Below are positions 10,116 through 46,751 of a stretch of 46,751 nucleotides of DNA, piece by piece. Every line of letters begins with the position of its first letter. The stretch's first letter is position 1. A model generated the notes under the pieces. It saw only the letters and a program-made list of their open reading frames with translations, did no database searches and was not told where the DNA came from. The translations under genes and the position numbers were made by a program. Origin of the DNA: Nannochloropsis oceanica (lineage: Eukaryota > Sar > Eustigmatophyceae > Eustigmatales > Monodopsidaceae); the NCBI GenBank assembly GCA_004519485.1, contig CP038135.1:1127501-1174251 (forward strand), given 5' to 3'.

Positions 10116-13100
10116 ATGTCGTCTTCAACCCCGTCGTCTGAATTCCCAGCGTTGCCCCCTGGCCTCGTCGCTGCCCTTCTTGCCCTCCCTCCGCCCCCTG
10201 GCAAGACATTGGCGTTTGGCACCGCAGGTAAAGCCAGTTAATAAGTGGATGAAAATGGATAGAGAAGAGAGTGGGAAGGGGAATAAAGTGGTTAAACACA
10301 TTTTAAAGTTTGTTGTTGTTCTCCCAAGTGATGAGACCAAGAATTTATCCATTTATTGTAAACCCTTCATCCTTCCTCCCTACCCACCTAGGCTTCCGCG
10401 ACAAGGCTGTATTGCTCGAGTCAACATTCATGCGGATGGGTGTCCTGGCTGCGTTGCGTTCCATGGCGCGTGGGGGGCAAGTGATCGGTAATGGATGGAA
10501 AGAGTGGGAGCAAAAGGGTGTTTGGAGATGAAGACATGGCATCTGCCTCGTTGTTTCCTTTCGCGCAATGCTTACTGCCATTCTCCCCCTTCATCCCGGA
10601 AACAGGTCTGATGGTCACAGCTTCTCATAACTCCGTGGAGGATAACGGAGTCAAGATTGTTGATCCCGAGGGAGGGATGCTGGCCATGGATTGGGAGAAA
10701 CACGCAGCCGCCCTGGCTAATGCCACGTCGGAGCAGGTGAGGAAGCGAAGGCAGGGAGAGAGGGGGATGGCAAAATTTTGACGATGAGATAGTCTATTTA
10801 ATAATTTCTTGGTCCTAATATCAGCTTCCTCCCTCCTCCCTACACGAAAAACAGGAGCTCGTCACCGTCCTTACCTCCCTCCTGCCCTCCTCGTCTTCCT
10901 CCTCCTCTTCCTCCTCGCCCCGCGTTTGGATCGCCCGTGACACCCGCCCACACTCCCTCCATCTCTCTTCCCTCGCCATCGAAGGCGCCCTCTTGCTCGT
11001 CAGTGACGGAAGAGGGGAGGGAGGGAGGGAGGGAGGGCAGGGCGCAGTGCTGGACCTGGGGCTGCTCACTACCCCACAGCTCCATCATTGCATACGCATG
11101 GAAAATGGTCGCTTCGAAGGAGGGAAGAAGGGCGGGAAGGAAGGCGCCTTCCTCGTCCCGGGAGGCACGCCGGCCTGGCAGGGTGAGGGCGGGTATATCC
11201 ACCTCCTCTCTTCCGCCTACCTCACACTCCTCTCCACCGCGGCTGGTGCCAGCCCTTCCTCCGTCCCTCTCTCCCTCCCTCCCTCTTCAGCCTTGTGGGT
11301 GGATTGCGCTCATGGTATTGGTGCGCTCAAGCTACCGGCTGTGCTGGCGGCGATTAATGAGGCGGCGACGAGCGAAGGTGAGGGAGGGAGGGAGGGAGGG
11401 AGGGAGGGAGGCGGAGTCACCGTGGCCGGGGGTTGAGTGCTGTTGAGGTCTTCGAGCTGGCGGTGGTTCTCGAGGAGGTGGCAACGAGAGGTATTGGGGA
11501 AGACGGGGAGCGAGGGTGTGAGGGAGGGAGGGAGGGAAGGGAGGGGTGCCGTAACCTCACTAGATGCCTCCTTCACGTCTCTCCCCACCTCCCTTTCCGT
11601 TCGCTTCCATCCCAGCCGCTAAGCTGGACGTGACGCTGGTCAACACGGCTGAGGAGGAGAACGCCATCCTTCTCAACGACGCCTGTGGCGCTGAGTTTGT
11701 GCAGAAGGGGCAGAAGCCGCCGAAGGGAATGGAGAAGGAGAAGGGTAGGTGGGAAGGGAGGGAGGGAGGGAGGGAGGGAGGGAGGGAGTGTGGGAGGGAT
11801 AAGAGTATGAGGCCTGCCTTTCATTTATGTTACTAATGAGGATGGAATAAAAACCTTGCCTTTACTGGAGGGTGAGAGGGAGGGAGAGAGGGAGGGAGAG
11901 AGGGAGGGAGGGAGGGAGGGAGGGAGGGAGGGAGGGAGGGAAGGAGGGAGGGAGGGTTTGAATTCCATCCTCATGTATGAAATCAATGAAAGGCAGGCCT
12001 CGTATTCCCGTCCATCCCCTCCTCCTATCCCTCCCTCCCCCCCCCTCCTTCCTCCAGACAAGGGCAAGCGGTGGGCGAGCTTGGACGGGGACGCCGACCG
12101 CCTCGTATACCATTATTTCGACCAGGATGGTACGACCCGCCCGCCTCCCCCCTCCCCTCCCCCTCCCTTTATATTTATTAATTTGTTTGTGTTAAGTTTT
12201 TTTATGCGTATTTGCAAGAGTGAAGGCAAGGCATGGCGCATGACGCTCTCCTCCTCTGTCCCTCCCGCTTTCCCTCCTGCCCTCCCTCTTCAAGGCCACT
12301 GGCACCTCCTCGATGGCGATAAGATGGCTGTGCTCGCCGCCGATTTCCTCATGGACGCGCTCAGGGAGTCTGGACTGCCGCCTCCCGAGGGTAGGGAGGG
12401 AGGCATGGAGGGAGGTATGGAGGGAGGTATGGAGGTATGGAGGGAGGGAGGGTAGCTCATCTCGTTGCTCATGTCCATTCCTTGTCCTCACAGTATCCAC
12501 AGGAGGCGACGGAGGACCCGGCGGGGAGTGGAGGGTCGCGGTTGTCCAGACAGCCTACGCCAATGGGGCCTCCACACGTACGTGCACCATGCCCTTTATC
12601 CCTTCCTCCCTTCCTCCCTCCCTCCCTCCTTCCTTGTGCTGTACTTTGCCTCGTCTTTCAGCTCGCCCTTATCCACATCCCTGCCTTCCTCCTCCTCCCC
12701 CCCCCCCCCCCTTCCTTCTTTCTCCCCCACCCATTCACTCCCCTTGTCCCACCGATACTCCTCTCCCTCTCACCTTCCTCCTTCCTTCCCTCCCTTTGTC
12801 TGTCAGGCTACCTCCGCGAGAAGGGCGTCCCTGTGGCTTTTGCCAAGACGGGCGTTAAATTTGTGCACCATGAGGCGGAGAAGTACGACCTGGGCATCTA
12901 CTTCGAGGTCAGGGAGGGGGCGAGGGAGGGAGGGGGGGAGAGAGGGAGGGAAGGAGGGAGTTTCACAGCCGTCTCTCACCGAAACTCACTTTGAGCTGTG
13001 CTGGAGGAGAGGAGAATACAGCCTACCTTCAATTCCATTACGCTCACTCACTCCCTCAGTGACCCACTCAGACAAACACTACTCTCTCTCTCTCCCCCCC

Positions 13101-14606
13101 TCCCTCTCTGCCTCTCTCCCCCCCCCTCTCTCTCTCCACTCTTCCCCTACCCCATCTCGCTTACACACGCCAACACACACGCCAGCCACCTGTCTCCCCC
13201 CCTGTCTCCCTGCACACCCACATACACACCATACACTCACCCCTCCCTGCCTCACACACATCTACCCGCCCACCGTGCCCTCCTCGTCCCGCACCCTCCC
13301 ACTTCCCCTCAGGCCAATGGACATGGCACCGTCCTCTTCAGCGAGGCCCTGTCCCTTGCCCTCCTGGCCCACCACGCGTCTTTCGCGGAGGGAGGGGCAG
13401 AGGAGTGGGTGGAGGAAAAGCTGAAGCAGAAGGTAGCAACCACCCGCCTGATCAGTGCACAGCAGCTCATCAACCAGGTGAGGCTCACCTCTCCTTCTGC
13501 TCCACATTTTCTTCTTTCCCTCTCTCTTTCCCCGGCCCTTTGCTCATCTCATCTCAGTCGCCTCTTTCGTCGTTCTTCCCTCCTTCACTACCTCCCTCCC
13601 TTTCTCCAACCACAATCTTTTGCATGCCCTCACCAGGCGGTCGGCGACGCCATAAGCGACTTGCTCTTTATCGAGGCCGTGCTACGGTAAGCACTCCAAC
13701 CTCTCTCCACCCTTCCGCCCTCCCCTTGCTTCCTCCTTCCTGCCTCCTTCTCAGATTCCCACTCTCGCCCGACTCTTGCCTTTCCTCATTCCCTTCTTCC
13801 CTCCCTCCTTCCCTCCCTCCCTCCCCTCCCTCCTTCCCTCGTCCCTAGCCTGAAAGGGTGGGACGTGTCCGCCTGGGCGCAGGGGCTGTACACGGACTTG
13901 CCCTCGAAGCAGCTCAAGCTCCAGGTGCCAGATAGGACAGTAGTGAGGTAGGACGGGAGGGAGGGAGGGAAGGAGGGAGGGAAAAAGGGAAGGAAGGAGG
14001 AGGCGTTGATTTCTTTCAGCCGAAAGGGATTAAGCTCCAGGTGCTGGACGGGTACGAGGTAGCAAAGGAGGAAGGGAGGGAGGGGAGGAAGGGATGAATA
14101 CCGAGAATTAAAAAAGTAAAGAAGGCTTAGAGAGAAAAGCAGACTCGCAAATCCATCGCAAGACAGAAGACAAAACTTCATCATTCATGTCCTTCTTTCC
14201 TTCCTTCCTCCCTCCTCCCCTCCTTTCCCCCAGCTGCAACGCCGACGAGACCCGCGCCCTCACCCCACCCAGTCTCCAAGAGAGGCTCGATGCCCTGATG
14301 GCCGCCCCGGCAGTGGCCCCTCACGGCCGTGTCTTTGTCCGTCCTTCGGGGACGGAGGACGTGGTCAGGGTGTATGCAGGTGAGCACGGAGGGAGTGGAA
14401 TGAGGGGACGGTGAGGGAGGAGGACAGGCCATCCGCTCATCCATGTTTTGGGCCCATTATAATAATTATTATTACGCACAGAGGCGGACACACCAGATGC
14501 GGCGGCAGAGCTGGCCACGGAGGCGGCGCGCATCGTGCAGGAGATGGTTGGGACACCGCCCAAGCAAGAGGGGAACGGAGGGAGGACAGGAGGCGGAATG
14601 GAATAG
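10116..14606 (+). CDS. PGM3: Phosphoacetylglucosamine mutase
   Basis: Converts GlcNAc-6-phosphate to GlcNAc-1-phosphate on the cytosolic route to UDP-GlcNAc. Fourteen exons join in phase: 10116-10227, 10392-10487, 10606-10736, 10855-11377, 11616-11744, 12058-12129, 12295-12390, 12494-12577, 12807-12907, 13313-13477, 13637-13686, 13849-13947, 14234-14379, 14482-14606, giving 642 aa (human 542). The catalytic phosphoserine loop T-A-S-H-N-S has Ser76. The metal loop D-G-D-A-D-R is at ~340-345. The phosphate-binding loop R-P-S-G-T-E-D is at ~589-595. The motifs [16 protein letters not shown] and [11 protein letters not shown] match the family closely. The extra length is mostly low-complexity sequence in exon 4: a serine run, a GGGA-repeat-encoded G-R-E-G-G segment at ~164-177, and Pro/Ser stretches. 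A decayed copy of exon 9 plus intron 9 lies in the array at 18023 and 21338. Confidence 0.96.
11871..11956. repeat. (GGGA)n tract in PGM3 intron 5
   Basis: Long run of GGGAGAGAGGGA then pure GGGA units inside the intron between 11745 and 12057. The intron ends in a C-rich TCCCTCCC stretch before its CAG acceptor, so the two blocks are mutually complementary in the transcript. Confidence 0.88.
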
Positions 14607-15126
14607 ATAGCTTTTCTCTTATTTTGCGAAGGAGAATGACGATTGAGTTATGGATACAAATAAACCGGATTCATGCGCTTCGTATTGCCTCTCCTCCTGG
14701 TTCGATTCCCTTTGACGTGGGACGTCCCATTGGGCCTGTGAATAGTGAATAGTGAATGAATAAATAGTGGGGAGGGACGAGATCGGAAAAGCAGAGGGAA
14801 AGTAAATGGTGAATATATTACGTTTGCTTTGTTTTAAAATTTCTCCTGCCTTTTCTTGATTTATATATATATTGAAATTCGTGGGAGAATGATATGCTAG
14901 CCTTGTTCTAATACCTCGTGACAAGACTTGCGCCCACTGAGATGGAAAATGTGGATCTGGGCCGAAAAACTAATCGTGACCCTGACTTTTTGGGTCGCAT
15001 GTGGTAAATTGTGTTTTCCCAGATCGCGGAATGCGTATCTAGAGCCATGACGATGGACATTCCATCAAGTGCAGCAATACTCTCTTTGTGGTTTCAGTGA
15101 TGACCATAGCGTGAAGCATGGTCTGC
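14607..15126. other. PGM3 3' flank up to the array edge
   Basis: Contains the PGM3 3' UTR and AT-rich sequence, including a TATATATAT stretch near 14865. No gene seen. Unique sequence stops at 15126, where the repeat unit starts. Confidence 0.6.
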
Positions 15127-15140
15127 TCATTCTTTTTTGG

Positions 15141-15169
15141 TAGTTTCCTACAATCCTAAAATTATCGCG
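15141..15169 (+). repeat. 29-bp inverted repeat, left arm (unit 1)
   Basis: Begins TAGTTTCCTACAATCC and ends TTATCGCG. Its exact reverse complement is at 17832-17860, 2.7 kb away, with the secreted-protein gene between. The arms recur in unit 2 (18456-18484 and 21147-21175). In unit 3 the left arm is at 21771-21799 and the right arm near 26588-26616. It could be the terminal inverted repeat of a mobile element, but I see no clear target-site duplication or transposase. Confidence 0.85.
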
Positions 15170-16198
15170 TGCAGTCTATCCCCAGACAAATGCAAACACA
15201 GGTGCTTACAGAAGCATGCCACCTCTCGGGATTACACACGAGGGGAAGCCTAAAATGCTGTCGTATGAGCAGTTGTCATGTAGAGAAGGAAAAGCGTGTG
15301 CTCATGAGGAACATGAAAGGGGTATTAAACATCATCGTGCACAAGATGAGTGCAGCAAAACCATCTTCTGGTGCAAGTACACCAAGCTAGAGCAGACAAT
15401 AGTACAGATAACATGGACAAGGCGAACCAGCTCGAGTCGAAACATTCATAATACCAAGGAGTGGCCAACGGACGCGTCGGAACATAATTGCCTTCTTTCT
15501 CCAAGAGACAATCTTCGTCTTCCTTGATGACTCCACTGCCTACACATGCCAAGTACACACGCATAGGACATTAAACATAACCATACCTATCTCCAATATA
15601 AGGCGAGAGACATCAAGACAACGCGTAAGAGAAGTGCGTCGTACCAGACGCACAGGAAGCAAACCAGCCAGCCAATGGCGTCACAATTTATGGTGATGTA
15701 GCTTCGGTTTTAAACCCCAAAAAAACAAAAACCAGTTTATGGTTTGAAACCAAAAACCAGTTTATTTGGTGGTTTTTGGTTTTCTTTTCTTGGATTGAAT
15801 CTCAATGTTTCATACACTTGGTTGCTTGTGCTCTTGCATTATTGTATTTCAGTTGCTTGCTTCCTTGTATGCGTACCGTCAGCCTGCATGGTAGCACCAT
15901 CGATGGGCTACTTGCCTGTTTGCCACATCTGATCTGGTTGGTTGCCTCCTTGGGAAAGCAATGGAATCCCTTGGAATACCGCACAGACATACTCTGTGTC
16001 TCACAGATAAAGTGTCTGTGACACCCCGAGATACTCGCACCTACCCACATGTCCATGTCCACACGCACACGCACATGCATCCCTCCCCCGCTCTCAACCC
16101 ACCCAGCCCCACAATGTATATCAATCGTTCTTAACCCTCCCCACCCACACCTCACGCACTCTGTTTCATCCATACGTGGCAACACAAGCAAGCCAACA

Positions 16199-16627
16199 AT
16201 GTTCATCAAGAAGCTGCCCTCGCTCCTTGTGCTTGCTTTATGCGCCAGTAATGCGGCCGCCGGTTACACCAAGACGGTCAACGCCTCCACCTACGCTCTG
16301 ACAACGTATGATGCCGCCGCTGACAAGCCCCTCCAGGTGAAGCCCAACACCGTCTACACCATCGACAAGTTTCTCGACGAAGACTACCACATTGTAATCC
16401 AGTGCCCGCAGCCCAAGAATGGTCGCATGAAGAAGAAGGGTTTCATCACCTATTTGAGCTATTACGAAGGCTTTAATGACAGTGGTCTCGAAGTCTATGG
16501 GGACGGCAGCGACGATGTACAAGGTGAAATATGGAGTGCCGTTGGTGATCCTGGGTACGGATCTTTCCTTGCGCTGTTCTGCACCAATGGCAAGCTTACC
16601 TTTGGCTTTAATTATGAAGGCTCATGA
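16199..16627 (+). CDS. Small secreted protein, array copy 1 (unknown function)
   Basis: 142 aa with no family I recognise. The start is set at the ATG at 16199 because it opens a typical signal peptide: M-F-I-K-K, then a Leu/Val/Ala core, with a likely A-A-A-G cleavage region around residue 22. The frame is open further upstream to 16049, but that extension is low-complexity and would bury the signal peptide. The mature part has two cysteines, in I-Q-C-P-Q-P and L-F-C-T-N-G, which could form one disulphide. It also has two N-glycosylation sequons (N-A-S and N-D-S) and many Gly, Tyr and Asp residues. The predicted compact, possibly beta-rich exported domain is inference. There is no intron. 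Two identical copies follow at 19514 and 22829. Confidence 0.78.
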   Translation: MFIKKLPSLLVLALCASNAAAGYTKTVNASTYALTTYDAAADKPLQVKPNTVYTIDKFLDEDYHIVIQCPQPKNGRMKKKGFITYLSYYEGFNDSGLEVYGDGSDDVQGEIWSAVGDPGYGSFLALFCTNGKLTFGFNYEGS

Positions 16628-17117
16628 TAGCGTGTCGTACTGAATATTATGATTGAATGACCGGACCAGCTTCTCATTCCAATCTCTATTTGTTTGCTGT
16701 GATGTGTTGCCGAGACGCGTGTATCTTTGACGACGTCCTGTCATTTCTACTCTTGCACGAGGATGTGAGCATAATTCAGGGACCGATGAAAGCCCGGCAA
16801 CCCCATCAGAAGCCTTGGTGGATGAATAATCACATGGTACGGAGTGGAGAAGTAGCTAAAGAATCAAAAGCAAGGCGCCAAAATCGAAACTTTGACGGCT
16901 CTGTTTTCTTTCCCCCCCTTTCGGGTCTTTTTTGTTTTTGTGCATGCGCAAAGTGCGAGTCTGACAGAGTATTAAAAAACAAGGACCGTTAACGACCAAG
17001 CAATTCAGAAGAGAGCACATTTCACTCCTGAACATCATCATACAGCCCTCTTAGATCCCTAAACCAAGCAAAAGCTCGAAGCGCGTAATAACAACACCAC
17101 AAATAATATAAACCGTA

Positions 17118-17535
17118 CGGACTATACATAATTCTGTGTACGTTTTTTGCTCTTTTTATTTTTTTTTTAGTTTTAATCACCATAACGTGCAGAAGCAAAG
17201 CCACCGGCATGATGGCATCTGCTTCTATCTTAATGTTAGCACCGAACTAATCCTGCCCCGCATGACGGGGTAGATGCCGGTATCCGTTCTACTCGGGCCG
17301 TGGGATGACCGGCAGTCAAAGGAGCGGCCTTCTCAGAGCGGAATGCGTCATCGTCCCGTACCATCGAGTGGGACTGATGCCGGCACCTATCCCGTCATGT
17401 GGGGCGGGCTTAATTTGGTGCTCGCATTAAGATAGAAGTAGATGTCATCATGCCAGTGGCAAAGCACGTGATGGTGAATTAAACCCAGAAAAAATTAAAA
17501 GAGCAAAAAACTTATATAACTTTCTGTATAGTCCG
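17118..17535. mobile_element. MITE-like fold-back element in unit 1
   Basis: About 418 bp beginning CGGACTATACA and ending with the reverse complement TGTATAGTCCG. Inside, T-rich TTTTTTGCTCTTTTTA near the left end mirrors AAAAGAGCAAAAAACTTA near the right. The central part pairs through CCCGCATGACGGG-type and ATGCCGG-type blocks. No coding capacity is seen, so it would be non-autonomous. Related copies sit at 20433, 23954 and 25874. Confidence 0.75.
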
Positions 17536-17831
17536 TGAAGAAGTGAGCGAAGTGAAGCGCAACTGTTGCTTCTTTCTCTTCGCACCACAGATGCGGACAC
17601 TGTATAAAATGCTTCCCCTCTGACCTCCTCTTCCCCCACCCCTTCTCCTAGCCCTGTATGGGCCGTCCGAGGGCTTTGCTGGTATAGTTAAAAACCTGTC
17701 AAAGCCACAAAAAAATATTTGGCAAAATAAGGGGAAAATTACTGTTGGAGGGCTTATGCTCGTTTGTAGTCCTGGTGACGTGGCGGACTTGTGCTCGGGT
17801 AGGTAGCATTTGTTTGCGGGTATGGGTTGCG

Positions 17832-17860
17832 CGCGATAATTTTAGGATTGTAGGAAACTA
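17832..17860 (-). repeat. 29-bp inverted repeat, right arm (unit 1)
   Basis: Exact reverse complement of 15141-15169. The sequence between the two arms is 2.66 kb and encloses the secreted-protein gene and the fold-back element. Confidence 0.85.
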
Positions 17861-18022
17861 CAGCTCACTTTTGCCACCAAATCTTATGAGCCTGAGGGTC
17901 TCCGATTTCTTCTTTTCCAAGCAAGGCGGGCAGGAAATCAAGCGGACATCCACCAAGGCATACTCAAGCAAATAATTGACCTTTTTTACTCAACAATGCT
18001 GTGACAATTTATAGCTTCATGA

Positions 18023-18440
18023 GGCGAGGAAGTAGGACCTGGGCATTTACTTTGAGGTCAGAGAGGGGTGGAGGGAGGGAGGGGGGGGAAGGAGGGGTGG
18101 AAAGAGGGAGGCAAGGAGGGAGGTTCACGGCCGTGTCTACCGAAACTCAACTTGAGCTGTGCCAGAGAGGAGAAGAATACGGCCCACCTTCAATCTTATT
18201 ACGCCCACTCATTCACTAAGTGACCGACTCAGACAAACAATACTCTCTCTCTCCCTCCAACTCTGCCGCTCTCCACCACCCCTCTCTGTCTCCACTCTTC
18301 CCCTACCCGGCGATCTCGCTTACATTCACCAACAAACATGCCAGCCATCTGTCTCTCCCCCCGTCCCCCTGCACACCCACATCAGCACCATACACTTATC
18401 CATCCCCGCCTCACACACATCTACCCGCCCACCGAGCCGT
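18023..18440 (+). pseudogene. Decayed PGM3 exon 9 / intron 9 fragment (unit 1)
   Basis: Diverged duplicate of ~12,883-13,290: the end of PGM3 exon 9, its donor and most of intron 9. The exon part retains D-L-G-I-Y-F-E followed by a GTCAGAG donor, but the Tyr codon before it has become TAG and the sequence upstream is scrambled. The intron part follows the parent through the GGGA tract, an ACCGAAACTCA block, an ACTCAGACAAACA block and the CACACACATCTACCCGCCCACCG end. Many substitutions and small indels show it is not recent. No coding function is expected. Confidence 0.85.
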
Positions 18441-19513
18441 GTCATTCTTTTTTGGTAGTTTCCTACAATCCTAAAATTATCGCGTGCAGTCTATCCCCAG
18501 ACAAATGCAAACACAGGTGCTTACAGAAGCATGCCACCTCTCGGGATTACACACGAGGGGAAGCCTAAAATGCTGTCGTATGAGCAGTTGTCATGTAGAG
18601 AAGGAAAAGCGTGTGCTCATGAGGAACATGAAAGGGGTATTAAACATCATCGTGCACAAGATGAGTGCAGCAAAACCATCTTCTGGTGCAAGTACACCAA
18701 GCTAGAGCAGACAATAGTACAGATAACATGGACAAGGCGAACCAGCTCGAGTCGAAACATTCATAATACCAAGGAGTGGCCAACGGACGCGTCGGAACAT
18801 AATTGCCTTCTTTCTCCAAGAGACAATCTTCGTCTTCCTTGATGACTCCACTGCCTACACATGCCAAGTACACACGCATAGGACATTAAACATAACCATA
18901 CCTATCTCCAATATAAGGCGAGAGACATCAAGACAACGCGTAAGAGAAGTGCGTCGTACCAGACGCACAGGAAGCAAACCAGCCAGCCAATGGCGTCACA
19001 ATTTATGGTGATGTAGCTTCGGTTTTAAACCCCAAAAAAACAAAAACCAGTTTATGGTTTGAAACCAAAAACCAGTTTATTTGGTGGTTTTTGGTTTTCT
19101 TTTCTTGGATTGAATCTCAATGTTTCATACACTTGGTTGCTTGTGCTCTTGCATTATTGTATTTCAGTTGCTTGCTTCCTTGTATGCGTACCGTCAGCCT
19201 GCATGGTAGCACCATCGATGGGCTACTTGCCTGTTTGCCACATCTGATCTGGTTGGTTGCCTCCTTGGGAAAGCAATGGAATCCCTTGGAATACCGCACA
19301 GACATACTCTGTGTCTCACAGATAAAGTGTCTGTGACACCCCGAGATACTCGCACCTACCCACATGTCCATGTCCACACGCACACGCACATGCATCCCTC
19401 CCCCGCTCTCAACCCACCCAGCCCCACAATGTATATCAATCGTTCTTAACCCTCCCCACCCACACCTCACGCACTCTGTTTCATCCATACGTGGCAACAC
19501 AAGCAAGCCAACA

Positions 19514-19942
19514 ATGTTCATCAAGAAGCTGCCCTCGCTCCTTGTGCTTGCTTTATGCGCCAGTAATGCGGCCGCCGGTTACACCAAGACGGTCAACGCC
19601 TCCACCTACGCTCTGACAACGTATGATGCCGCCGCTGACAAGCCCCTCCAGGTGAAGCCCAACACCGTCTACACCATCGACAAGTTTCTCGACGAAGACT
19701 ACCACATTGTAATCCAGTGCCCGCAGCCCAAGAATGGTCGCATGAAGAAGAAGGGTTTCATCACCTATTTGAGCTATTACGAAGGCTTTAATGACAGTGG
19801 TCTCGAAGTCTATGGGGACGGCAGCGACGATGTACAAGGTGAAATATGGAGTGCCGTTGGTGATCCTGGGTACGGATCTTTCCTTGCGCTGTTCTGCACC
19901 AATGGCAAGCTTACCTTTGGCTTTAATTATGAAGGCTCATGA
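19514..19942 (+). CDS. Small secreted protein, array copy 2
   Basis: Same 142-aa product as the gene at 16199, shifted by exactly 3,315 bases, with the same signal peptide, two cysteines and two sequons. Its upstream and downstream sequence is also the same, so it should share whatever promoter copy 1 has. Confidence 0.78.
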   Translation: MFIKKLPSLLVLALCASNAAAGYTKTVNASTYALTTYDAAADKPLQVKPNTVYTIDKFLDEDYHIVIQCPQPKNGRMKKKGFITYLSYYEGFNDSGLEVYGDGSDDVQGEIWSAVGDPGYGSFLALFCTNGKLTFGFNYEGS

Positions 19943-20432
19943 TAGCGTGTCGTACTGAATATTATGATTGAATGACCGGACCAGCTTCTCATTCCAATCT
20001 CTATTTGTTTGCTGTGATGTGTTGCCGAGACGCGTGTATCTTTGACGACGTCCTGTCATTTCTACTCTTGCACGAGGATGTGAGCATAATTCAGGGACCG
20101 ATGAAAGCCCGGCAACCCCATCAGAAGCCTTGGTGGATGAATAATCACATGGTACGGAGTGGAGAAGTAGCTAAAGAATCAAAAGCAAGGCGCCAAAATC
20201 GAAACTTTGACGGCTCTGTTTTCTTTCCCCCCCTTTCGGGTCTTTTTTGTTTTTGTGCATGCGCAAAGTGCGAGTCTGACAGAGTATTAAAAAACAAGGA
20301 CCGTTAACGACCAAGCAATTCAGAAGAGAGCACATTTCACTCCTGAACATCATCATACAGCCCTCTTAGATCCCTAAACCAAGCAAAAGCTCGAAGCGCG
20401 TAATAACAACACCACAAATAATATAAACCGTA

Positions 20433-20850
20433 CGGACTATACATAATTCTGTGTACGTTTTTTGCTCTTTTTATTTTTTTTTTAGTTTTAATCACCATAA
20501 CGTGCAGAAGCAAAGCCACCGGCATGATGGCATCTGCTTCTATCTTAATGTTAGCACCGAACTAATCCTGCCCCGCATGACGGGGTAGATGCCGGTATCC
20601 GTTCTACTCGGGCCGTGGGATGACCGGCAGTCAAAGGAGCGGCCTTCTCAGAGCGGAATGCGTCATCGTCCCGTACCATCGAGTGGGACTGATGCCGGCA
20701 CCTATCCCGTCATGTGGGGCGGGCTTAATTTGGTGCTCGCATTAAGATAGAAGTAGATGTCATCATGCCAGTGGCAAAGCACGTGATGGTGAATTAAACC
20801 CAGAAAAAATTAAAAGAGCAAAAAACTTATATAACTTTCTGTATAGTCCG
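20433..20850. mobile_element. MITE-like fold-back element in unit 2
   Basis: Same element as 17118-17535, duplicated as part of the array unit rather than inserted independently. Confidence 0.75.
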
Positions 20851-21337
20851 TGAAGAAGTGAGCGAAGTGAAGCGCAACTGTTGCTTCTTTCTCTTCGCAC
20901 CACAGATGCGGACACTGTATAAAATGCTTCCCCTCTGACCTCCTCTTCCCCCACCCCTTCTCCTAGCCCTGTATGGGCCGTCCGAGGGCTTTGCTGGTAT
21001 AGTTAAAAACCTGTCAAAGCCACAAAAAAATATTTGGCAAAATAAGGGGAAAATTACTGTTGGAGGGCTTATGCTCGTTTGTAGTCCTGGTGACGTGGCG
21101 GACTTGTGCTCGGGTAGGTAGCATTTGTTTGCGGGTATGGGTTGCGCGCGATAATTTTAGGATTGTAGGAAACTACAGCTCACTTTTGCCACCAAATCTT
21201 ATGAGCCTGAGGGTCTCCGATTTCTTCTTTTCCAAGCAAGGCGGGCAGGAAATCAAGCGGACATCCACCAAGGCATACTCAAGCAAATAATTGACCTTTT
21301 TTACTCAACAATGCTGTGACAATTTATAGCTTCATGA

Positions 21338-21755
21338 GGCGAGGAAGTAGGACCTGGGCATTTACTTTGAGGTCAGAGAGGGGTGGAGGGAGGGAGGGGG
21401 GGGAAGGAGGGGTGGAAAGAGGGAGGCAAGGAGGGAGGTTCACGGCCGTGTCTACCGAAACTCAACTTGAGCTGTGCCAGAGAGGAGAAGAATACGGCCC
21501 ACCTTCAATCTTATTACGCCCACTCATTCACTAAGTGACCGACTCAGACAAACAATACTCTCTCTCTCCCTCCAACTCTGCCGCTCTCCACCACCCCTCT
21601 CTGTCTCCACTCTTCCCCTACCCGGCGATCTCGCTTACATTCACCAACAAACATGCCAGCCATCTGTCTCTCCCCCCGTCCCCCTGCACACCCACATCAG
21701 CACCATACACTTATCCATCCCCGCCTCACACACATCTACCCGCCCACCGAGCCGT
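21338..21755 (+). pseudogene. Decayed PGM3 exon 9 / intron 9 fragment (unit 2)
   Basis: Same fragment as at 18023, with the same in-frame TAG, at the end of unit 2. It is absent from the end of unit 3, where sequence after 26763 is unrelated. Confidence 0.85.
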
Positions 21756-21756
21756 G

Positions 21757-23644
21757 TCATTCTTTTTTGGTAGTTTCCTACAATCCTAAAATTATCGCGT
21801 GCAGTCTATCCCCAGACAAATGCAAACACAGGTGCTTACAGAAGCATGCCACCTCTCGGGATTACACACGAGGGGAAGCCTAAAATGCTGTCGTATGAGC
21901 AGTTGTCATGTAGAGAAGGAAAAGCGTGTGCTCATGAGGAACATGAAAGGGGTATTAAACATCATCGTGCACAAGATGAGTGCAGCAAAACCATCTTCTG
22001 GTGCAAGTACACCAAGCTAGAGCAGACAATAGTACAGATAACATGGACAAGGCGAACCAGCTCGAGTCGAAACATTCATAATACCAAGGAGTGGCCAACG
22101 GACGCGTCGGAACATAATTGCCTTCTTTCTCCAAGAGACAATCTTCGTCTTCCTTGATGACTCCACTGCCTACACATGCCAAGTACACACGCATAGGACA
22201 TTAAACATAACCATACCTATCTCCAATATAAGGCGAGAGACATCAAGACAACGCGTAAGAGAAGTGCGTCGTACCAGACGCACAGGAAGCAAACCAGCCA
22301 GCCAATGGCGTCACAATTTATGGTGATGTAGCTTCGGTTTTAAACCCCAAAAAAACAAAAACCAGTTTATGGTTTGAAACCAAAAACCAGTTTATTTGGT
22401 GGTTTTTGGTTTTCTTTTCTTGGATTGAATCTCAATGTTTCATACACTTGGTTGCTTGTGCTCTTGCATTATTGTATTTCAGTTGCTTGCTTCCTTGTAT
22501 GCGTACCGTCAGCCTGCATGGTAGCACCATCGATGGGCTACTTGCCTGTTTGCCACATCTGATCTGGTTGGTTGCCTCCTTGGGAAAGCAATGGAATCCC
22601 TTGGAATACCGCACAGACATACTCTGTGTCTCACAGATAAAGTGTCTGTGACACCCCGAGATACTCGCACCTACCCACATGTCCATGTCCACACGCACAC
22701 GCACATGCATCCCTCCCCCGCTCTCAACCCACCCAGCCCCACAATGTATATCAATCGTTCTTAACCCTCCCCACCCACACCTCACGCACTCTGTTTCATC
22801 CATACGTGGCAACACAAGCAAGCCAACAATGTTCATCAAGAAGCTGCCCTCGCTCCTTGTGCTTGCTTTATGCGCCAGTAATGCGGCCGCCGGTTACACC
22901 AAGACGGTCAACGCCTCCACCTACGCTCTGACAACGTATGATGCCGCCGCTGACAAGCCCCTCCAGGTGAAGCCCAACACCGTCTACACCATCGACAAGT
23001 TTCTCGACGAAGACTACCACATTGTAATCCAGTGCCCGCAGCCCAAGAATGGTCGCATGAAGAAGAAGGGTTTCATCACCTATTTGAGCTATTACGAAGG
23101 CTTTAATGACAGTGGTCTCGAAGTCTATGGGGACGGCAGCGACGATGTACAAGGTGAAATATGGAGTGCCGTTGGTGATCCTGGGTACGGATCTTTCCTT
23201 GCGCTGTTCTGCACCAATGGCAAGCTTACCTTTGGCTTTAATTATGAAGGCTCATGATAGCGTGTCGTACTGAATATTATGATTGAATGACCGGACCAGC
23301 TTCTCATTCCAATCTCTATTTGTTTGCTGTGATGTGTTGCCGAGACGCGTGTATCTTTGACGACGTCCTGTCATTTCTACTCTTGCACGAGGATGTGAGC
23401 ATAATTCAGGGACCGATGAAAGCCCGGCAACCCCATCAGAAGCCTTGGTGGATGAATAATCACATGGTACGGAGTGGAGAAGTAGCTAAAGAATCAAAAG
23501 CAAGGCGCCAAAATCGAAACTTTGACGGCTCTGTTTTCTTTCCCCCCCTTTCGGGTCTTTTTTGTTTTTGTGCATGCGCAAAGTGCGAGTCTGACAGAGT
23601 ATTAAAAAACAAGGACCGTTAACGACCAAGCAATTCAGAAGAGC
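21757..23644. repeat. Tandem array unit 3, left part
   Basis: Identical in sampled lines to the first 1,888 bases of units 1 and 2, then breaks off after CAGAAGAG. The corresponding continuation (AGCACATTTCACTCC) resumes at ~25766 after foreign, repeat-rich sequence. Confidence 0.9.
22829..23257 (+). CDS. Small secreted protein, array copy 3
   Basis: Third identical 142-aa copy. Its coding region and near flanks are intact even though unit 3 is broken ~390 bases downstream of the stop, so it may be expressed. Confidence 0.77.
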   Translation: MFIKKLPSLLVLALCASNAAAGYTKTVNASTYALTTYDAAADKPLQVKPNTVYTIDKFLDEDYHIVIQCPQPKNGRMKKKGFITYLSYYEGFNDSGLEVYGDGSDDVQGEIWSAVGDPGYGSFLALFCTNGKLTFGFNYEGS

Positions 23645-25767
23645 CTTAGTGCCCTTTGTCTGAGGAAAGATTTTCATATAAAACTTCTCATAGAAGTTTC
23701 TAAAAGAGTCTAACGGACCACTTCATGATTATGTAAACTACATATATACAATTAAATGTCGTAGTAAACGATCCAGATTGATTTTTCCCGTCGCCCGTAT
23801 CCGAACTGCCATGAGAAAGAAAGGGCGTTCTGGAGTTACTGATGCAGTGGATGTCCATATGGCGGCAGCAAAAAGTAACTGGCAGTCAATGTTATCGACT
23901 TTTGTGAGCAGGAAATATAGTTCGAGTCCAATGATAACTGTTGAGATGATTAACGGACTATACAGAAAAATATATACGTTTTTTGCTCTTTTTACTTTTT
24001 TAGTGTTTTAATCACCATTATGAGCCTTGCCACCGACATGATGGCATCTACTTCTATCATAATGTGAGCACCAAAATAAATTCGCCCTAGGTCGCGGGGT
24101 AGTACACATGGCGCGGGATGACCGGCAGCCAAAGGAGTGACTTGTGCGATCCTACGATATAGATGCTAGTTTTTTCATGGCGCTGCAAAAAATGTCTATA
24201 AAAAGAGTGACGTCCATCAATGGAGATGACATAAATTCACACTTGACAAGGCTCGTAATGGTGATTTAAACCCCACAGGTAACTGGCGGTATGGTGAAAG
24301 AACCAAAACTCTGGGAACCAAAAGCCTTTTGGCCATGGGAACCAAAAGCTTTAGCCTTGGCCACAAGCCTTGACCTTTGGGAACCAAACGCCTTAGCCAT
24401 CATCACTTGGGAATCAAACTTCCTGACAACCCATATTTTAGTCCTGAATCATCAAAGCGCGAAGCGCGTTAATCAATACAAAAAACACCAAAAATAACAG
24501 AAACCGTACGGACTATACAGAAAGTTATGTAAGTTTTTTGCTCTTTTTACTTTTTGGAGTTTTAATCACCATTACGAGCCTTGTCACCGGCATAGTGACA
24601 TTTCCTTCTATCATATTTTGAGCACCAAAAGAAGCCCGCCACGCATGACGGGGAAGCTGCCGGCATCAGTCCCACACGTTGGCGCGGGATGACCGACAGC
24701 CAAAGGAGCGGCTTGTTTAGAGCGGGATGGCGTAATCGTCCCGCGCCAACGTGTGGGACTGATGCCGGCAGCTTCCCCGTCATGCGTGGCGGGCTTCTTT
24801 TGGTGCTCAAAATATGATAGAAGGAAATGTCACTATGCCGGTGACAAGGCTCGTAATGGTGATTAAAACCCCAAAAAGCGGGACGATGACGCCATCCCGC
24901 TCTGAACAAGCCGCTCCTTTGGCTGCCGGTCATCCCGCGCCAACGAGTGGGACTGATGCCGGCAGCTTTCCCGTCATGCGGGGCGGGCTTATTTTTGTGG
25001 CAATAATTAATCAATAATTTTATAATTACGCCGGTAAAATTTTCTAGTCATCAGCATGACGAATATAGGCACCAATTTTGTTGGTGCCTTAAATATGAAA
25101 GTGGCCACGTGAATAGATCTGCTTACGCTATATATGAAGTCTTTATATACGATAATTTGTGTGTTTCTTTTTTTAATTTCCTTCTCAATAAATGTACTTT
25201 TTCTGACTCCGTTTGGACATCACACACCAAGTCTCCCGACAAGACGGGCAAAAAACTTACATAACTTTCTGTATAGTCCGTACGGTTTCTGTTATTTTTG
25301 GTGTTTTTTGTATTGATTAACGCGCTTCGCGTTTTGATGATTCAGGACTAAAATATGGGTTGTCAGGAAGTTTGATTCCCAAGTGATGATGGCTAAGGCG
25401 TTTGGTTCCCAAAGGTCAAGGCTTGTGGCCAAGGCTAAAGCTTTTGGTTCCCATGGCCAAGGCTTTTGGTTCCCAGAGTTTTGGTTCTTTCACCATACCG
25501 CCAGTTACCTGACAAGGCGACAAGGCTCGTAATGGTGATTAAAACCCCAAAACAGTAGAAAGAGCAAAAAACTTACATAACTTTCTGAATAGTCCGTAAA
25601 AAGAGCAAAAATCGTATATGTTTTCTGTATAGTCCGTGTCATCAGCATGACGAGTATAGGCATCAACAAAACTGGTGCCTAAAACAAGAAAGTGGCCCCG
25701 TGAATAGATACGATTGTATTATCCTTCGCGCCCAGAATTAATTGAACCCCGATCTGAAGAACTATAA
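23645..25767. mobile_element. Nested fold-back element insertion interrupting unit 3
   Basis: About 2.1 kb absent from units 1 and 2. An outer element runs from CGGACTATACAG at 23954 to TGTATAGTCCG at 25637. Inside it, arms 24276-24541 and 25249-25511 are near-perfect reverse complements, including an odd run of AACCAAAAGCCTT-like units. Between those arms is a long palindrome (24551-24877) and another partial copy (24886-25000). A direct repeat starting GTCATCAGCATGACGA occurs at ~25048 and ~25638. No transposase or other coding region is visible. The flanks share at most two bases, so a target-site duplication is not evident. Confidence 0.8.
24551..24877. repeat. Long near-perfect palindrome
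   Basis: Arms ~24551-24698 and ~24738-24877 are reverse complements with only a few mismatches, separated by ~40 bases. The left arm starts TTTTTGGAGTTTTAATCACC and the right ends GGTGATTAAAACCCCAAAAA. Such a structure can extrude as a cruciform or be transcribed into a long hairpin. Confidence 0.88.
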
Positions 25768-26763
25768 AGAGCACATTTCACTCCTGAACATCATTATACA
25801 GCCCTCTTAGATCCCTGAACCAACAAAAAGCTCGATGCGCGTAATAACAACACCACAAATAACATAAACCGTACGGACTATACATAATTCTGTGTACGTT
25901 TTTTGCTCTTTTTATTTTTTTGGGGTTTTATATAACGTGCAGAAGCAACGCCACCGGCATGATGGCATCTGCTTCTATCTTAATGTGAGCACCAAATTAA
26001 GCTCGCCCCGCATGACGGGCTAGATGCCGGCATCAGGCCACAGGCGTTTTCGCGGGACGATGACGCCATACCGCTCTAAACAAACCGCTGCTTTATGTCT
26101 GCCGGTCATCCCGCGCCATCGAGTGGGACTGATGCCGGCACCTATCCCGTCATGAGGTGCGGGCTTAGTTTGGTGCTCACATTAAGATAGAAGTAGATGC
26201 CATCATGTCGGTGAAAAAGCACGTGATGGTGATTAAAAGCCCAAATAAATAAAAAGAGAAAAAAACTTATATAACTTTCTGTATAGTCCGTGAAGAAGTG
26301 AGCGAAGTGAAGCGCAACTGTTTCTTTTTTTCCTTCGCACCACAGATGCGGACGCTGTATAAAATGCTTCCCCTCTGACCTCCTCTTTCCCCTCCACCTT
26401 CTTCTAGCCCTGTATGGGCCATCCGAGGGCTTTGCTGGTATAGTTAAAAACCTGTCAAAGCCACAAAAAAATATTTGGCAAAATAAGGGGAAAATTACTG
26501 TTGGAGGGCTTATGCTCGTTTGTAGTCCTGGTGACGTGGCGGACTTGTGCTCGGGTAGGTAGCATTTGTTTGCGGGTATGGGTTGCGCGCGATAATTTTA
26601 GGATTGTAGGAAACTACAGCTCACTTTTGCCACCAAATCTTATGAGCCTGAGGGTCTCCGATTTCTTCTTCAAGCAAGGCGGGCAGGAAATCAAGCGGAC
26701 ATCCACCAAGGCGTACTCAAGCAAATAATCGACCTTTTTTACTCAACAATGCTGTGACAATGT
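25766..26763. repeat. Tandem array unit 3, right part (diverged)
   Basis: Corresponds to ~17026-18010 of unit 1 but with many substitutions and indels in its first ~600 bases, while ~26410-26755 is almost identical to units 1 and 2. Similarity ends after GCTGTGACAAT, where units 1 and 2 continue into the PGM3 fragment and this copy runs into unique sequence. It looks like the older, ancestral right edge. Confidence 0.85.
25874..26290. mobile_element. MITE-like fold-back element, diverged copy
   Basis: Starts CGGACTATACATAATTC and ends TATAGTCCG. It differs clearly from the copies at 17118 and 20433 in its centre, where a CGCGGGACGATGACGCC block replaces theirs. Confidence 0.72.
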
Positions 26764-27181
26764 ATGGATTCACGCATTGCAGGAGTCAGTTCCAGGGTCT
26801 CGTCCAATCCAGGCGAGCAAGAAGCGAAGTCGGGGCAAGTGGAGGAGCGAGGTGCAAGCAAGCGCTCTCCGAGCAGAAACAAGCTTCATCTTGTTCTTTC
26901 CCTGGCTTCTAGATTCACACGCCCGGGCTAAAACATGGTGATGCGCACCGAATTCAGCCAGGAATGGATATGGAAGTTAATCAAATCATCATTCATGCAG
27001 CGACTAAATGTGCCGGCATGTTAGGGAGATTTTGCCTCTCTCCGCTCCGTGCAGTTAACTGCAGTCATGCGGAGGCGTGCTTGGACGCGGCATATAATGT
27101 TTCATGGCATTCCAGATCTCACTTACTAACCCACTGCCAAAACACACTCCGCGGCACATTAGCACAGTGATTTGGGGAGGT
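26764..27181. other. Unique spacer and 5' flank of the repeat membrane protein gene
   Basis: No array similarity and no supportable gene. It holds the presumed promoter of the gene starting at 27182. Confidence 0.55.
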
Positions 27182-46485: not shown

Positions 46486-46751
46486 GGTTAGGGTTAGGGT
46501 TAGGGTTAGGGTTAGGGTTAGGGTTAGGGTTAGGGTTAGGGTTAGGGTTAGGGTTAGGGTTAGGGTTAGGGTTAGGGTAGTTAGGGTCTCGTTTAGGGTT
46601 AGTGTTAGGGTTAGGGTTAGGGTTAGGGTTAGGGTTAGGGTTGAGGGGTTAGGTAGGGTAGGGTTAGGGTTAGGGTTAGGGTTAGGGTTAGGGTTTAGGG
46701 GTTAGGGTTAGGGTTAGGGTTAGGGTTAGGGTTAGGGTTAGGGTTAGGGTT
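46486..46751 (+). repeat. Telomeric (TTAGGG)n repeat, chromosome end
   Basis: About forty TTAGGG units, G-rich strand running 5' to 3' toward the window end, as at a right-hand chromosome end. Variant units break it near 46578-46600 (TAGTTAGGGTCTCG and TTAGTG), at ~46642-46662 (GAGGGGTTAGGTAGGG) and at ~46693 (TTTAGGGG). The variants show slippage or sequencing noise; the last ~50 bases are regular. Confidence 0.97.

What the first reader, a model, noticed from the sequence alone, without database searches (positions are those of the whole stretch)
15127..26763. Tandem array amplifying a secreted-protein gene in identical 3,315-bp units
Three identical genes for a 142-aa exported two-Cys protein sit in direct repeats of exactly 3,315 bp, within a window where every other gene is single copy. 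Recent amplification of a secreted protein suggests dosage selection, or an element that replicates itself with a cargo gene.
Basis: partly seen in the sequence, partly recalled or inferred. Interest (0 to 1): 0.72.

Follow-up and report, generated by a model that had tools for sequence, protein, structure and literature searches.

The report
Recent tandem amplification of algal gene
Near one chromosome end of an oil-producing alga, a small gene for a probably exported protein of unknown function sits in three identical head-to-tail copies, most likely made by ordinary recombination in an already duplicated, transposon-littered stretch.

Summary
The repeat is real in the sequence. Positions i and i+3315 match without a break from 15127 to 20328, so the array is 15127-23643 and holds 2.57 units, not three, though it contains three identical copies of the 142-aa gene. 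The genome fits the N. oceanica assembly of PMC6610115. The array lies about 22.8-31.4 kb from a telomere. Each unit is layered: G (gene block, 1887 bp, 0 differences), M (homologue M' beyond the third copy, 97% outside its fold-back repeat) and U (87% to an exon-intron piece of the upstream phosphoacetylglucosamine mutase-like gene). This gradient, and a deletion joining G to M, point to an older duplicated locus that recently gained a copy, most simply by unequal exchange within G. The unit begins at the 3' end of an inverted relic of a dispersed, 5'-truncated, probably TnpB/Fanzor-type element, so a transposon end marks one breakpoint. A self-copying cargo element is not supported: the only other relative found in the genome (contig C7, 75% aa identity) lacks these ends. 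Copy number is uncertain because that assembly's PacBio reads averaged 4.3 kb. Protein function is unknown: no Pfam hit, and the fold model is too poor to use.

The parts
15127..18441 (+). Unit A of the array (3315 bp)
   Evidence: Exact self-match at offset 3315 from 15127 to 20328
18442..21756 (+). Unit B, identical to unit A
21757..23643 (+). Third copy, only the first 1887 bp of the unit (block G)
16199..16627 (+). Gene copy 1, 142 aa, probably exported
19514..19942 (+). Gene copy 2, identical
22829..23257 (+). Gene copy 3, identical
15127..15251 (-). Inverted 3'-end relic of the dispersed TnpB/Fanzor-like family; 15127 is its last base and the unit's first. The same relic starts units B and C.
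   Evidence: 84% to L082 over 127 columns; 3' end pattern
17014..18019 (+). Segment M of the unit: fold-back repeat (about 17014-17540), then the second relic and flank
17590..17863 (+). Second 3'-end relic of the same dispersed family, direct orientation
18018..18441 (+). Segment U: fragment of the upstream mutase-like gene
   Evidence: 51 differences in 403 aligned positions to 12869-13279
12869..13279 (+). U': source-like stretch inside the upstream phosphoacetylglucosamine mutase-like gene
   Evidence: neighbouring exons match AMG1_III (below cut-off) and PGM_PMM_IV (above cut-off)
23644..25767 (+). 2.1-kb nest of dispersed repeats between the third G and M'; missing between G and M in the units
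25768..26772 (+). M', older homologue of M
   Evidence: 89% by BLAST; 14 differences in 476 outside the fold-back part
46486..46751 (+). Telomere repeats at the contig end

Best explanation
A subtelomeric locus was duplicated in steps and has recently gained a copy. Inferred order: the ancestral arrangement was mutase gene - spacer - relic terminus - G - 2.1-kb repeat nest - M'. An old duplication put M next to a mutase fragment (U). The nest was lost between G and M in one copy, and the mutase tail plus spacer were lost up to the relic terminus in the other, leaving G-M-U-G-nest-M'. Exchange between the two G blocks kept them alike. An unequal crossover (or equivalent break repair) between them then gave G-M-U-G-M-U-G, which is exactly the 2.57-unit array seen. 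Shown: the anatomy, the breakpoints and the divergence gradient. Inferred: the order of events and the mechanism of the last step. The product is probably a secreted protein of unknown function; a benefit of higher dosage is possible but untested.
For: Both ends of the array are ends of G, as exchange inside G predicts. Divergence rises outward: G 0, M/M' 14 of 476, U/U' 51 of 403. The G|M joint is a deletion joint: in M' and in four other genomic copies (L002, L003, L006, L012) the repeat runs on to the left of the joint. M and M' share an exactly identical 249-bp tract although they differ around it (16 events in about 480 positions; a gap of 240 or more arises by chance with P 0.00025, a test chosen after seeing the data), as conversion would leave.
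Against: U/U' is much more diverged than M/M' (0.139 against 0.030), so one duplication without later conversion cannot explain both. The left edge falls exactly on a transposon terminus, which exchange alone does not explain. No reads, strains or relatives could be compared. The copy number may be an assembly error (PMC6610115 passages).
Confidence: 0.55

Rival explanations
1. Assembly error in copy number: the organism has a different number of units, and the assembler expanded or collapsed an unresolved repeat.
For: The 8.5-kb array is exactly identical, while the PacBio reads of the matching assembly averaged 4.3 kb and were assembled with Canu and polished (PMC6610115 passages).
Against: The joint U|G and the joint to the 2.1-kb nest are specific and cannot come from a single-copy locus by mere collapse; depth was about 113-fold and templates were size-selected near 20 kb. 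At least two G copies are needed to explain the two different left flanks, unless the contig is misjoined.
Confidence: 0.22
2. Transposon run-on: one-ended, rolling-circle-like copying or breakage that starts at the relic's 3' terminus copied the neighbouring gene and inserted a multimer that begins exactly at the terminus and ends at a chance point.
For: The unit begins at the terminus base, and the array ends part-way through a unit. The family is 5'-truncated with a shared 3' end that has a small hairpin. Chlamydomonas Fanzor1 families behave in a similar way (PMC3627910 passages), and tandem Helitron arrays are reported (PMC5876387 passage).
Against: The other array edge coincides with an older deletion joint, which run-on leaves to chance. 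No consistent target-site duplication was seen at the 20 loci examined (5' ends are uncertain). No Helitron Rep domain was found, but the control rang nowhere. All copies looked at are relics.
Confidence: 0.12
3. The gene is cargo of a mobile element bounded by the two inverted relics, which spreads by transposition.
For: The gene lies between two relics in inverted orientation.
Against: The two relics resemble different family members best (left L082 at 84%, right L072 at 74%) and both are 3' ends. Among the 34 terminus hits in the genome (up to 3 mismatches), the 28 outside this locus include no inward-facing pair within 6 kb. The C7 gene has no such ends, and the protein search found no further copy.
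Confidence: 0.03

Closest known systems
Tandem gene arrays grown by unequal exchange with concerted evolution (general kind, recalled)
   Same: Exact head-to-tail period, homogenised genes, older duplicates at the edges, position near a telomere
   Different: The left edge sits on a transposon terminus; the protein family has no known function
Fanzor1 families CRe-1, 2, 3 of Chlamydomonas (PMC3627910, passages)
   Same: Dispersed copies truncated at the 5' side with a shared 3' end; TnpB/Fanzor-like coding end (probable here)
   Different: No target-site duplications recognised here; no link to a Helitron shown; copies seen are relics; no member passed the Pfam cut-off within the shared stretch
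Tandem Helitron arrays (PMC5876387, passage)
   Same: Head-to-tail units that begin at an element end
   Different: The unit is not an element, and both array ends can be explained by older joints
Photorhabdus PLL-type lectins (PDB 6rfz, 5mxe)
   Same: A weak summed similarity to repeated blades
   Different: No single stretch is significant; rejected as chance

Membership tests
Tandem amplification by unequal exchange | Direct copies at an exact period with no or few differences | tested here: met
   0 differences, period 3315
Tandem amplification by unequal exchange | Array edges coincide with edges of the shared homology | tested here: met
   Array starts and ends with G
Tandem amplification by unequal exchange | Copy number varies between strains at a fixed site | not testable with these tools
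   No other Nannochloropsis genome or reads were available in the collections used
Cargo-carrying transposon | Same unit found at other places in the genome | tested here: not met
   4 protein matches: 3 in the array and 1 C7 relative without the ends
Cargo-carrying transposon | Matching terminal inverted repeats, also seen elsewhere as pairs | tested here: not met
   Two different 3' relics; no inward pair within 6 kb among the 28 terminus hits outside the locus
TnpB/Fanzor-type element (for the dispersed relic family) | C-terminal zinc-ribbon/RuvC motif recognised by PF07282 | tested here: inconclusive
   15 PF07282 places, 5 above cut-off; the 6 whose match lies inside the shared family DNA have E 0.015-0.88, below cut-off; the motif reading is recalled
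Helitron2-linked Fanzor family (CRe type) | 5' truncation with a shared 3' end | tested here: met
Helitron2-linked Fanzor family (CRe type) | Rep/helicase partner in the genome | tested here: inconclusive
   PF14214: 0 matches, but nothing rang in the 14 controls either
Helitron2-linked Fanzor family (CRe type) | Target-site duplications of 7-19 bp | tested here: inconclusive
   2 of 20 loci had a shared word of 8-9 bp, not placed at both edges; 5' ends are uncertain
PLL-type lectin | Significant match of a single stretch | tested here: not met
   0 stretches pass on their own

The most novel reading that the evidence does not exclude
The terminus of a TnpB/Fanzor-type element is the active cause: breakage or one-ended copying that starts at that terminus picked up a neighbouring secreted-protein gene and laid it down as a multimer, i.e. 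a Fanzor-linked route to gene amplification in an alga.
Probability: 0.08. Interest if true: 0.6.

Novelty: new member of a known kind. Interest (0 to 1): 0.27.

Why it matters
If the copy number holds in long reads, this is a clean, recent gene amplification in a biotechnologically used alga described as asexual (PMC6610115 abstract passage), with its older steps still readable beside it. The protein family is small (one unlinked relative found here) and had no match in the collections searched, so the effect of its dosage could be tested directly by deletion. The dispersed 5'-truncated, probably TnpB/Fanzor-type family may be worth annotating: a 2014 study of six Nannochloropsis strains stressed how few mobile elements they have (PMC3886936 passage), while PMC6610115 counts 2354 transposons in 1030 genes (passage).

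Tried and rejected
Protein function: Pfam 0 families, NCBIfam 1 chance match (E 0.23, far below its cut-off), PHROGs 0; phage tblastn no match; viral contigs 112 and genome contigs 83 pattern stretches, none confirmed; the PDB lectin sum score was rejected. The AlphaFold model from 2 sequences has mean pLDDT 43.4, so no fold search was run. Rfam: 0 at gathering score in the window; 9 matches below gathering score in 15100-18500, taken as chance. I first read the G|M joint as the left end of a repeat; the flanks of other copies showed a deletion joint, and I dropped that. I first read the two relics as a terminal inverted repeat; one search showed two 3' ends of different members. Print: the papers listed (20, 15 and 12 of many) show nothing on this array in title or abstract start; this does not prove absence. 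Passages were read of PMC3886936, PMC8570151, PMC6610115, PMC3627910, PMC10711439 and PMC5876387, and the whole text of PMC6883114; other papers were seen as listings only.

Full report
What is there. The window is the end of contig C9 (1127501-1174251) of a 29,264,788-base genome in 32 contigs and ends in TTAGGG-type repeats (46486-46751). Contig C1 of this genome is 1,670,642 bp long, the same as the longest pseudochromosome of the published Nannochloropsis oceanica assembly of 29.3 Mb in 32 pseudochromosomes (PMC6610115, passages); the totals differ by 38,485 bases. A light-harvesting protein of this genome matches the PDB molecule VCPI-2 at 370 bits over 169 residues; that VCP points to a eustigmatophyte is recalled.

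The array. The sequence equals itself at offset 3315 without a break from 15127 to 20328, so the array is 15127-23643: A (3315), B (3315) and 1887 bp of a third unit. Each copy carries one single-exon ORF for the same 142-aa protein. No other exact direct repeat of 60 bp or more exists in the window apart from pieces of M/M' and the telomere. The rule-of-three upper limit on divergence is about 0.0006 per site (3/5202; the compared sites are not all independent).

Layers of the unit. G (15127-17013) holds the gene. M (17014-18019) holds a fold-back repeat with inverted ends and a relic of a second dispersed family. U (18018-18441) is a piece of the upstream gene; two exon stretches of that gene match AMG1_III (E 1.8e-4, below cut-off) and PGM_PMM_IV (E 5.4e-8, above cut-off), i.e. 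a phosphoacetylglucosamine mutase-like gene. After the third G come 2.1 kb of nested repeats and then M' (25768-26772). Differences: G 0; M/M' outside the fold-back repeat 14 of 476; fold-back part 42 of 499 with 55 gap columns; U/U' 51 of 403 with 26 gap columns. The C7 relative of the gene is 75% identical in protein, with dN 0.13-0.14 and dS 0.31-0.35 by three methods, so it is much older and looks constrained. Similarity runs from about 300 bp before the start codon through the 3' side.

Joints. Left edge: 15127 is the last base of the 3' terminus of an inverted relic (15127-15251). In one search, 29 family 3' ends outside the window were anchored; by my count the tail ends in GAATTA in 9, differs from it by one letter in 6, and does not show it in 14. 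The window's version reads GAATGA and then continues differently before copy 1 and before copy 2. Right edge of G: in M' and in four other genomic copies (L002, L003, L006, L012) the repeat continues to the left of the joint with similar sequence, so the G|M joint is a deletion that removed the nest. The M|U joint shows about 2 bp of shared sequence (my reading).

The relic family. The stretch 17590-17863 has 38 further matches in the genome at 67-88% identity (40 of 132 candidates scored, two of the 38 lie side by side on C6). Copies are truncated at different 5' points but share the 3' end. Three longer copies show the end of a reading frame with RDGNxARNIL, which I recall as a TnpB/Fanzor C-terminal motif. 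PF07282 finds 15 places, 5 above cut-off. Eight of the 15 loci share DNA with the family references, one of them over 43 bp only; the six whose PF07282 match lies within the shared stretch are all below cut-off. The name is therefore probable, not proven.

How it arose. Best reading: an old duplicated locus, trimmed by two deletions to G-M-U-G-nest-M', kept alike by exchange, then one unequal exchange within G giving three G. This explains why both array ends are G ends, why divergence rises outward, and the 249-bp identical tract between M and M'. It does not by itself explain why U is more diverged than M, nor why one breakpoint sits on a transposon terminus. Transposon run-on explains the left edge only. 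A cargo element is contradicted by the lack of any other copy found between such ends.

Limits. The assembly's reads averaged 4.3 kb, shorter than the identical 8.5 kb, so the number three is the least secure part. Expression, export and benefit are untested. The signal peptide is read by eye. The protein had no relative in the collections searched, but those cover mainly bacteria, archaea and viruses, apart from Pfam; other algal genomes were not available.

Verdict. A real, recent and ordinary kind of gene amplification (subject to copy-number proof), with an interesting but unproven transposon involvement. Interest 0.27.

Noticed in passing
Window 17590-17863, 15127-15251 and 38 other matches in the genome (e.g. 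L033-L052, L068-L087): Dispersed, variably 5'-truncated repeat family with a shared 3' end (small hairpin, then an A-rich tail) and a probably TnpB/Fanzor-like coding end.
   Followed up: partly
Window 17014-17540 and 23950-26294; many copies genome-wide: Abundant fold-back/MITE-like repeat with ends ACGGACTATACA; several copies nest in one another after the third gene copy.
   Followed up: partly
Window 17666-17914 against 26422-26670: 249 bp exactly identical between M and M' although the surrounding sequence differs by about 3% or more; looks like a conversion tract.
   Followed up: partly
L006 and L012 (C30:338233 and C30:342034, about 3.8 kb apart): Two copies of the fold-back repeat share near-identical flanks on both sides, which suggests another tandem duplication.
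   Followed up: no
L005 (near C7:1061700): Short internal stretch of telomere-type repeat beside a copy of the fold-back repeat, about 250 kb from the contig end.
   Followed up: no
C7:526200-526619 (L001, L016): Single relative of the amplified gene, 75% identical in protein, with promoter-side and 3' similarity; looks like the older, unamplified locus.
   Followed up: yes
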